A DNA stretch of 41,651 nucleotides, taken from assembly GCA_002726415.1 (NCBI GenBank), contig PBSU01000038.1, positions 3,025-44,675 of the forward strand, in the 5' to 3' direction. How positions within the stretch are numbered: position 1 is the first letter of the stretch; each line of letters opens with the position of its first letter. The position numbers and the translations under genes are program-made. Shown piece by piece: positions 5,195 to 21,119 of this stretch. This DNA is from Acidiferrobacteraceae bacterium. GTDB lineage: Bacteria > Pseudomonadota > Gammaproteobacteria > Arenicellales > UBA868. The notes under the pieces were generated by a model. The model did no database searches and was not told the DNA's origin. It worked only from the letters and a program-made list of their open reading frames with translations.

Positions 5195-5208
5195 TTGATC
5201 TGAGTCAA
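5195..5208 (+). promoter_or_regulatory. Candidate FNR/ANR-type box TTGATctgaGTCAA
   Basis: 9/10 match to TTGAT-N4-ATCAA; followed by TCTAAT (-10-like, 5233-5238) at about class II spacing. Confidence 0.45.
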
Positions 5209-5224
5209 AACCACCTGCGCTTGT

Positions 5225-5752
5225 GTGGTTAGTCTAATCACCGGCAAGCACCAGTCTGGTCAACAAATCGCCCGGGAGACGCAACTGCCTGAAACCAGTT
5301 TACTCGACAGCATGCTCTCGTGCTGGAAAAAGCGCTATCCAGGAGCACCAGGACCGGATCCGGGTCTTTGTGTTATTGCCTGTCACATTAGCCGCTCGGA
5401 GGATAGCAGTTTTCACCTGCAGGCAGAGTACATCTCGGCTGATCCAGACTACCCGGGTAACTATATCTTCTTTGAGTGCCCCACACCCACTATGGGTGCT
5501 ATTACTTTCAATTCGGTCGGTGACGCCACCTCGTTTCTAGATCAGGAAGTTGACAGCCTGGTAAACCGATACCCTCAAATGCAGATCATCCGGATGGTGC
5601 CAACCTCACCGGCTGAAGGATTTATCCGCTCGGAAGTTTTCAGCAATAACCTCTGGGTCACCCGGGAAGAGGGATTACGACACCGTTTCGCCTGCTCTCA
5701 ATGTGGCCAACCCCTTATCGACCAAGCATGTCCAACGTGTAGCAAAACATAG
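5225..5752 (+). CDS. Uncharacterised protein with C-terminal CxxC...CxxC zinc-ribbon-like tail
   Basis: C-terminus FACSQCGQPLIDQACPTCSKT; the first ATG in frame is at 5312, so the start is uncertain. Confidence 0.55.
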   Translation: MVSLITGKHQSGQQIARETQLPETSLLDSMLSCWKKRYPGAPGPDPGLCVIACHISRSEDSSFHLQAEYISADPDYPGNYIFFECPTPTMGAITFNSVGDATSFLDQEVDSLVNRYPQMQIIRMVPTSPAEGFIRSEVFSNNLWVTREEGLRHRFACSQCGQPLIDQACPTCSKT

Positions 5753-18457: not shown

Positions 18458-18906
18458 TCAGGCAGGTTTATGGCGCAATTTAGCCGCCACGAAATCCTTT
18501 TGGGGTATATGCAATAGACGTTGAATTTTGCGCATCAGGTGCAATTCGTGATCATCCAGGCGTGCGTCGGCATAAACAATACGCCACATCTGCTCAACCA
18601 GATTCAAGCGGTCTTTTTCGCTCCAGTGCTGGTTTATCAGCGACGTAAAACCGTGTAGGCCCGTCGCCTCGCGCGCTTGATCCTCTGCCAGCGCCAGTAG
18701 CGTTTCAGCATCCGCCTGCGCCAGAGAGAACTGTTCACATACCAGCGACTGGATGGTCTTTCTCTCCTGCTCACCCAGATCGTAATCCGCCATTGCGGTC
18801 TCAAAAAGCAGCGCGGCTGAAGCCAGGCGCAAAGACGCTTCCAGCCCAGAGTTATCGTCCTGGGCCTGGAGGCGCTTACGGAAAAAGTCACTGATCGCAT
18901 CTATCA
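18458..18906 (-). CDS. TerB-family tellurite resistance-like protein
   Basis: TerB-like helices (FETAMADYDLGEQERKTI..., WRIVYADARLDDHELHLMRKIQRLLHI); start at ATG 18906 preferred. Confidence 0.85.
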
Positions 18907-19031
18907 TGGCATCTCTCACCCCCCGGTACGTGGCTGGACATTCTAAGGGTATCGGAAGAAGGCCATGCGAAATACCCAATCAGGTGAGAACCAAAGATAA
19001 AGCGGGATGATATACCCTGCAAAACGCGGGC

Positions 19032-19066
19032 AAAAAAAAGGGGCGGGCCCTGGCGGGCACCGCCCC
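19032..19066 (-). terminator. Strong Rho-independent terminator (minus strand)
   Basis: GGGGCGG-u-GCCC-GCCA-GGGC-CCGCCCC followed by U8; T-tract only on the minus strand. Confidence 0.85.
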
Positions 19067-19097
19067 TACTTCCACGGTCATTCATGGAGGAGATATG
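19032..19097 (-). ncRNA. Candidate ~66-nt sRNA with anti-Shine-Dalgarno 5' segment
   Basis: Predicted TSS about 19097; 5' CAUAUCUCCUCCAUGAAUGACC...; terminator at 3' end; -10-like TTAATA at 19109-19104. Confidence 0.4.
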
Positions 19098-19132
19098 CAG
19101 GCGTATTAACCCATACCACCTAAACTGTCACC

Positions 19133-19146
19133 TTGACCCAGATCAA
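19133..19146. promoter_or_regulatory. Candidate FNR/ANR-type box TTGACccagATCAA
   Basis: 9/10 match to TTGAT-N4-ATCAA within the dyad CTTGACCCAGATCAAG; about 42 nt from predicted TSS at 19097. Confidence 0.55.
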
Positions 19147-19196: not shown

Positions 19197-19532
19197 CTAG
19201 GGGTTGCTGGGCGTACATTGGGTGCTCTGGCGATCACGCTGGCTGTCATAACGCATTTCGCAAACGACCACAGCACCGGCTTTCTCCAATCGATATTCGG
19301 TAACAGCTACAACGCGCTGGAGCTCAGTATATGGAGCGATACCCGCGCGGGTCTCCTGCCTTTCGATCGTTTCTGCAATGCGCCAACCCTGTTGGGTCAG
19401 ATCATAAACCTCCTGTTCATCCAACTGCGCCCGACCGGCGGTCGGCCACAGGCCCCCAGCGAAAAACGTCACTGCCGCAACGATACTCCAGTATCGCAGC
19501 CAATTCAGCGATGAGGTCTGGTGCGCTATCAA
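19197..19532 (-). CDS. Small hypothetical secreted protein
   Basis: 111 aa with N-terminal hydrophobic signal-like segment; directly downstream of upp. Confidence 0.5.
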   Translation of the reverse strand: MIAHQTSSLNWLRYWSIVAAVTFFAGGLWPTAGRAQLDEQEVYDLTQQGWRIAETIERQETRAGIAPYTELQRVVAVTEYRLEKAGAVVVCEMRYDSQRDRQSTQCTPSNP

Positions 19533-21002: not shown

Positions 21003-21012
21003 ATTCTCCTTG

Positions 21013-21099
21013 TTATCCGACGGGGCGTTCGGCAGAGGCCGGGCTGAGAAGAACCCGTTGAACCTGAACCGGATCATACCGGCGGAGGAATTCGGATAA
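21013..21099 (+). promoter_or_regulatory. TPP riboswitch (thi-box)
   Basis: ggctgagaagaacccgttgaacctgaaccggatcataccggcggaggaa; P1 ttatccga/tcggataa. Confidence 0.95.
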
Positions 21100-21119
21100 T
21101 GGTCTTAGCACCCCTCCGC

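What the first reader, a model, noticed from the sequence alone, without database searches (positions are those of the whole stretch)
19032..19146. Candidate FNR-controlled small RNA with an anti-Shine-Dalgarno seed, not in the ORF set
Seen directly on the minus strand: FNR-like dyad TTGACCCAGATCAA (centre about 19139.5), TTAATA -10-like hexamer (19109-19104), predicted TSS about 19097 (FNR centre about -42, class II position), 5' segment CAUAUCUCCUCCAUGAAUGACCGUGGAAGUA, then GGGGCGGUGCCCGCCAGGGCCCGCCCC-U8. The result is a ~66-nt transcript with a single-stranded CUCCUCC next to AUG and an Hfq-friendly U tail. FNR-dependent sRNAs (e.g. FnrS) and CU-rich anti-SD sRNAs are known; this specific unit is not one I recognise.
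Basis: partly seen in the sequence, partly recalled or inferred. Interest (0 to 1): 0.82.

Follow-up and report, generated by a model that had tools for sequence, protein, structure and literature searches.

The report
Oxygen-controlled small RNA, marine bacterium
An uncultured marine gammaproteobacterium carries a gene for a roughly 67-letter regulatory RNA that is probably switched on when oxygen runs out and probably blocks ribosome-binding sites of other messages; its switch, start, pairing end and stop signal are conserved in relatives, so it looks real, but it works like RNAs already known.

Summary
The minus strand has an FNR box (TTGATCTGGGTCAA, 19146-19133), an extended -10 (TGGGTTAAT), a start near 19098 (box centre at -41.5) and a 67-nt two-hairpin RNA ending in a strong terminator with U8. 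A covariance model of the RNA alone found 15 strong copies in 14 genomes (own included); 14 have an FNR box at exactly -41.5, one only a half-site. Box arms, -10, 5' end and stems are conserved while the bases between drift. All 15 copies lie directly upstream of terB; relatives without the RNA have a short ORF-terB gap, so the unit was gained or lost as a cassette. The genome encodes FNR (four cluster cysteines) and Hfq.

Best reading: an FNR-activated, probably Hfq-dependent trans-acting sRNA whose CU-rich 5' end pairs with ribosome-binding sites. Closest in anatomy is RF02278 (betaproteobacterial 'toxic'/double-hairpin sRNAs bdhR1, NcS27; also S17), but it scores 24.3 bits against a 50-bit cut-off, so it is like that family, not filed in it. 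None of the RF02278-type hits inspected had an FNR box. Targets are unknown; a cis role for terB is the main rival.

The parts
19133..19146 (-). FNR box TTGATCTGGGTCAA, centre at -41.5
   Evidence: same position in 14 of 15 copies
19105..19113 (-). extended -10, TGG-GTTAAT
   Evidence: conserved TGrsKTAAT in 15 copies
19032..19098 (-). predicted 67-nt sRNA (5' end at 19098 inferred from box and -10)
19085..19098 (-). CU-rich 5' end GCAUAUCUCCUCCA; the first ten bases are predicted single-stranded, presumed pairing region
19071..19088 (-). hairpin 1 (UCCAUG / CGUGGA)
19032..19067 (-). intrinsic terminator, stem-loop plus U8
18458..18907 (-). terB-family gene (PF05099), always next downstream of the sRNA; start codon placed by conservation of MIDAI
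19197..19532 (-). small ORF upstream, probably secreted, conserved; directly abuts terB in several genomes that lack the sRNA

Best explanation
It is a free-standing sRNA gene. Without oxygen, [4Fe-4S]-FNR binds at -41.5 and, with an extended -10, activates a 67-nt transcript that stops at its own terminator. The U-tail and CU-rich 5' end are expected to engage Hfq. The exposed GCAUAUCUCC end then pairs with Shine-Dalgarno/start regions of mRNAs, probably for functions not needed at low oxygen, and lowers their translation. Shown here: the parts, their conservation, the box position, and FNR and Hfq genes in the genome. Inferred: transcription, oxygen dependence, Hfq binding, targets, repression.
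For: 15 copies in 14 genomes found with the RNA alone, 14 with an FNR box at exactly -41.5. Functional parts conserved (box arms 84-85%, -10 84%, first 14 nt 82%) while the box-to-promoter spacer (48%) and upstream DNA (35-37%) drift. Compensatory changes in both stems. FNR over the NCBIfam cut-off with cluster cysteines and recognition helix; Hfq. Same anatomy as RBS-pairing double-hairpin sRNAs.
Against: No expression data. Pairing-energy ranking of 972 ORFs gave no excess of strong targets over shuffled seeds. Every copy sits next to terB, which also fits a cis role. In part of the copies (GCAACCUUCC) the CAU of the 5' end is changed.
Confidence: 0.68

Rival explanations
1. A cis-acting FNR-driven leader of terB: the hairpin is an attenuator, and terB is made by read-through from the FNR promoter, alone or besides a trans-acting role.
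For: All 15 copies lie just upstream of terB on the same strand, including both copies of one genome. In six genomes terB begins only about 30-37 nt after the terminator, leaving little room for a promoter of its own.
Against: In the window's clade the gap is about 125 nt and holds a conserved TTAGAATG that may be terB's own -10 (weak). A simple leader does not explain conservation of the first 14 nt. No conserved alternative antiterminator fold was seen.
Confidence: 0.18
2. Only the terminator of the upstream upp-small ORF transcript; the FNR box and -10 are chance.
For: It lies downstream of that ORF on the same strand.
Against: Box and -10 are conserved at fixed spacing in 14 of 15 copies amid drifting DNA; genomes without the unit lack box and terminator together; the second copy in G026 has different upstream DNA but keeps box and RNA (L041).
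Confidence: 0.03
3. A small protein gene: the 65-aa ORF at 18888-19085 or the + strand MQAY mini-ORF after GGAGGAGAT.
For: The ORF begins at the AUG beside CUCCUCC; the + strand reads GGAGGAGATATG.
Against: The AUG is absent in most relatives; MQAY has four codons and is merely the complement of the conserved 5' end.
Confidence: 0.02

Closest known systems
RF02278 Betaproteobacteria toxic sRNA / double-hairpin RNAs (bdhR1, NcS27) and Bordetella S17
   Same: About 60-70 nt, UCUCCUCCA 5' end, short UCCA/UGGA hairpin, then terminator with U-tail; CU-rich stretches matching ribosome-binding sites (PMC5688073, PMC11722255).
   Different: 24.3 bits against a cut-off of 50; no second CU stretch in loop 1; driven by an FNR box, which none of the RF02278-type hits inspected had.
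FnrS of E. coli
   Same: An FNR-activated sRNA expected to repress functions dispensable without oxygen (PMC8139620).
   Different: No FnrS match among Rfam hits up to E = 10; different sequence and a shorter RNA (FnrS length from memory).
RoxS/RsaE of Firmicutes
   Same: C-rich RBS-binding sRNA whose regulator senses low oxygen and NO (PMC4409812); a functional analogue.
   Different: ResD/SrrA instead of FNR, unrelated sequence, another phylum.
CcsR1 and SorY of alphaproteobacteria
   Same: CCUCC-bearing sRNAs; weak Rfam similarity of 15.3 and 17.2 bits.
   Different: Far below their cut-offs (65.3 and 111); no FNR control known to me.

Membership tests
RF02278 toxic sRNA | model score at or above the 50-bit gathering cut-off | tested here: not met
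   24.3 bits over the full length 1-64, E 0.0037
RF02278 toxic sRNA | two-hairpin fold with UCUCCUCCA start and UCCA/UGGA stem | tested here: met
RF02278 toxic sRNA | second CU-rich stretch in loop 1 (CCUCC, S17 site 2) | tested here: not met
   loop reads AAUGAC in the window; no CCUCC there in relatives either
RF02278 toxic sRNA | growth inhibition on overexpression in E. coli | not testable with these tools
   needs an experiment; S17, which resembles the family, was itself not similarly toxic
FNR-regulated sRNA | FNR box at a class II position of the sRNA promoter | tested here: met
   centre -41.5 in 14 of 15 copies
FNR-regulated sRNA | FNR with cluster cysteines in the genome | tested here: met
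   NF008365 at 239.9 bits, cut-off 228; C-x2-C-x5-C and TSLCELP
FNR-regulated sRNA | FNR-dependent anaerobic expression | not testable with these tools
   no RNA data at hand
Hfq-dependent trans-acting sRNA | Hfq encoded; terminator with U-tail | tested here: met
   PF17209 at 102.8 bits; U8 tail
Hfq-dependent trans-acting sRNA | conserved pairing with target mRNAs | tested here: inconclusive
   no excess over shuffled seeds in about half the genome; no conserved start-site target found
FnrS (Rfam) | sequence and structure match to the FnrS model | tested here: not met
   no FnrS among hits up to E = 10

The most novel reading that the evidence does not exclude
A general low-oxygen brake on translation: the 5' end GCAUAUCUCCUCCA is the complement of an ideal SD-spacer-AUG start site, and it is one of three CCUCC sRNA types in this family, each with a different kind of upstream region, together forming an oxygen-tuned network of competing anti-SD RNAs in bacteria of oxygen-minimum waters.
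Probability: 0.12. Interest if true: 0.75.

Novelty: new variant of a known kind. Interest (0 to 1): 0.5.

Why it matters
It joins two known ideas, FNR control and the CU-rich double-hairpin sRNA, in an uncultured marine lineage; I found no description of sRNAs there. Relatives come from the Eastern Tropical North Pacific and what look like Saanich Inlet bins (record titles; the reading of those names is mine). It suggests that RF02278-like sRNAs reach beyond the Betaproteobacteria and can be placed under oxygen control, and it can be tested in existing oxygen-gradient metatranscriptomes.

Tried and rejected
Target search by exact GGAGGAGATATG in 33 genomes: apart from the sRNA loci themselves, the recurrent site lies in the 3' coding end of a protein (...HRIRMEEICPSANN*, my reading of the frame), not at a convincing start site. 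Two other start sites with this motif occur in only one or two genomes each. Pairing-energy ranking of 972 ORFs: no excess over shuffled seeds. Class-wide search with model R1: hits near 30 bits outside the family are mostly bare terminators or RF02278-type RNAs without FNR boxes. Kimelman et al. 2012, which described the toxic sRNAs, is not held.

Full report
WHAT IS THERE. The minus strand reads TTGATCTGGGTCAA (19146-19133), 19 bases, TGGGTTAAT (19113-19105), ACGCCT, then GCAUAUCUCCUCCAUGAAUGACCGUGGAAGUAGGGGCGGUGCCCGCCAGGGCCCGCCCCUUUUUUUU (19098-19032). With GTTAAT as the -10 the start is G19098 and the box centre falls at -41.5, the class II position of FNR (established knowledge). The RNA folds into two hairpins (-34.5 kcal/mol, z -4.9). 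The first ten bases are free; the second UCC and the AUG are in stem 1. Two exact FNR-type boxes occur in the window against 0.15 expected.

CONSERVATION. A search with the neighbouring terB protein brought 18 loci from MAGs titled Arenicellales, Acidiferrobacteraceae, Proteobacteria or Gammaproteobacteria. Fourteen carry the same unit upstream of terB. A covariance model of the RNA alone (R1) recovered 15 strong copies at 66.7-90.4 bits in 14 genomes: 13 of 20 of the window's genus, own included, and two copies in one genome of a second genus. The FNR box was not part of the model, yet 14 of 15 have it at exactly -41.5 (one of these with a mismatch in the last base); the fifteenth (G019, the same locus as L040) keeps only a half-site. 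Over all 15, box arms are 84-85% identical, the four centre bases 64%, the spacer 48%, the -10 84%, the first 14 RNA bases 82%, DNA upstream of the box about 35-37%. Both helices pair in 94-97% of cells; four pairs show changes on both sides, in 16 cells against 6.1 in shuffles, and sliding the partner destroys the signal. These genomes are relatives and the model was built from 15 of these same loci, so the counts are not independent, but two sequence clades of the seed (UAUCUCCUCC and UACUUCCUCC) exist. An order-wide search (110 genomes) and a class-wide sample (387 genomes) found no further FNR-terB copies.

REGULATORS. The genome encodes an FNR above NCBIfam's cut-off (NF008365, 239.9 bits) with C-x2-C-x5-C, the fourth cysteine in TSLCELP, and the ETVSR recognition helix aligned to solved FNR structures. 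It also encodes Hfq.

GENOMIC CONTEXT. All 15 copies lie just upstream of terB on the same strand; 13 terB genes in the same family lack the RNA. In several of those the short ORF seen at 19197-19532 runs almost directly into terB, so the promoter-sRNA-terminator unit was inserted or lost as a cassette. On the terB tree the label is clustered and needs three changes, for example one gain and two losses. In six genomes terB begins about 30-37 nt after the terminator, the best argument for a cis effect on terB. In the window's clade a conserved TTAGAATG before terB may be a separate promoter (weak).

WHAT IT WORKS LIKE. In Rfam the best match is RF02278, full length, 24.3 bits, E 0.0037, cut-off 50. 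That family holds the 'toxic' double-hairpin RNAs of Burkholderia and resembles Bordetella S17; their CU-rich stretches match ribosome-binding sites, and S17 directly represses a target (PMC5688073, PMC11722255, PMC4603805). The window shares the UCUCCUCCA start and UCCA/UGGA stem but lacks the second CU stretch in loop 1. Hence it works like that family and is not filed as a member. Closer RF02278-type RNAs also occur in the window's own family (L049 at 50.1 bits) without FNR boxes. FNR control of an sRNA is known from FnrS (PMC8139620), and oxygen/NO control of a C-rich RBS-binding sRNA from RoxS/RsaE (PMC4409812).

MECHANISM. Most likely: low oxygen, FNR activation, a short Hfq-bound RNA, pairing of GCAUAUCUCC with Shine-Dalgarno/start regions, less translation. 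The first step is well supported by sequence; the last ones are inference. Target prediction on 972 ORFs gave no excess over shuffled seeds, so no target is claimed.

VERDICT. A real, lineage-restricted, FNR-type sRNA gene, new as a specific unit, of a recognised kind.

Noticed in passing
L059 (G000:C19:38173-38231) and L061-L063, L065, L067-L070, L073, L076-L078: A second sRNA-like unit in the same genome and genus: TTGAC/TATTAT-type promoter, TTTGTGCAnTGCACAAT inverted repeat, CATATCCTCCTCC, then a terminator; another CCUCC RNA with no FNR box.
   Followed up: partly
L049-L058, L060, and order family f10 (L135-L139, L141, L142): RF02278-type RNAs (CUCCUCCAUCCUCCUUUGGUGG) in the window's own family and order, one over the Rfam cut-off; the f10 ones share the GCAyAUCUCCUCCAU 5' end with the window's RNA.
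   Followed up: partly
L143 (G040:C35:102466-102511): In another family of the order, TTGATCCAGGTCAA lies upstream of a CUUCCUCCC segment and terminator: possibly an independent FNR-driven CU-rich sRNA.
   Followed up: no
window 5195-5208: A second exact FNR-type box, TTGATCTGAGTCAA, just upstream of the ORF at 5225-5752 (+).
   Followed up: no
window 21011-21108 (+): TPP riboswitch (RF00059, 69.8 bits) before a solute-binding protein and a permease gene, likely a thiamine transporter operon.
   Followed up: no
L041 / G026:C59: A second sRNA-terB copy with a different upstream region; its RNA and -10 segment are 97% identical to the window's although it lies in another genus, suggesting transfer or strong constraint.
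   Followed up: partly
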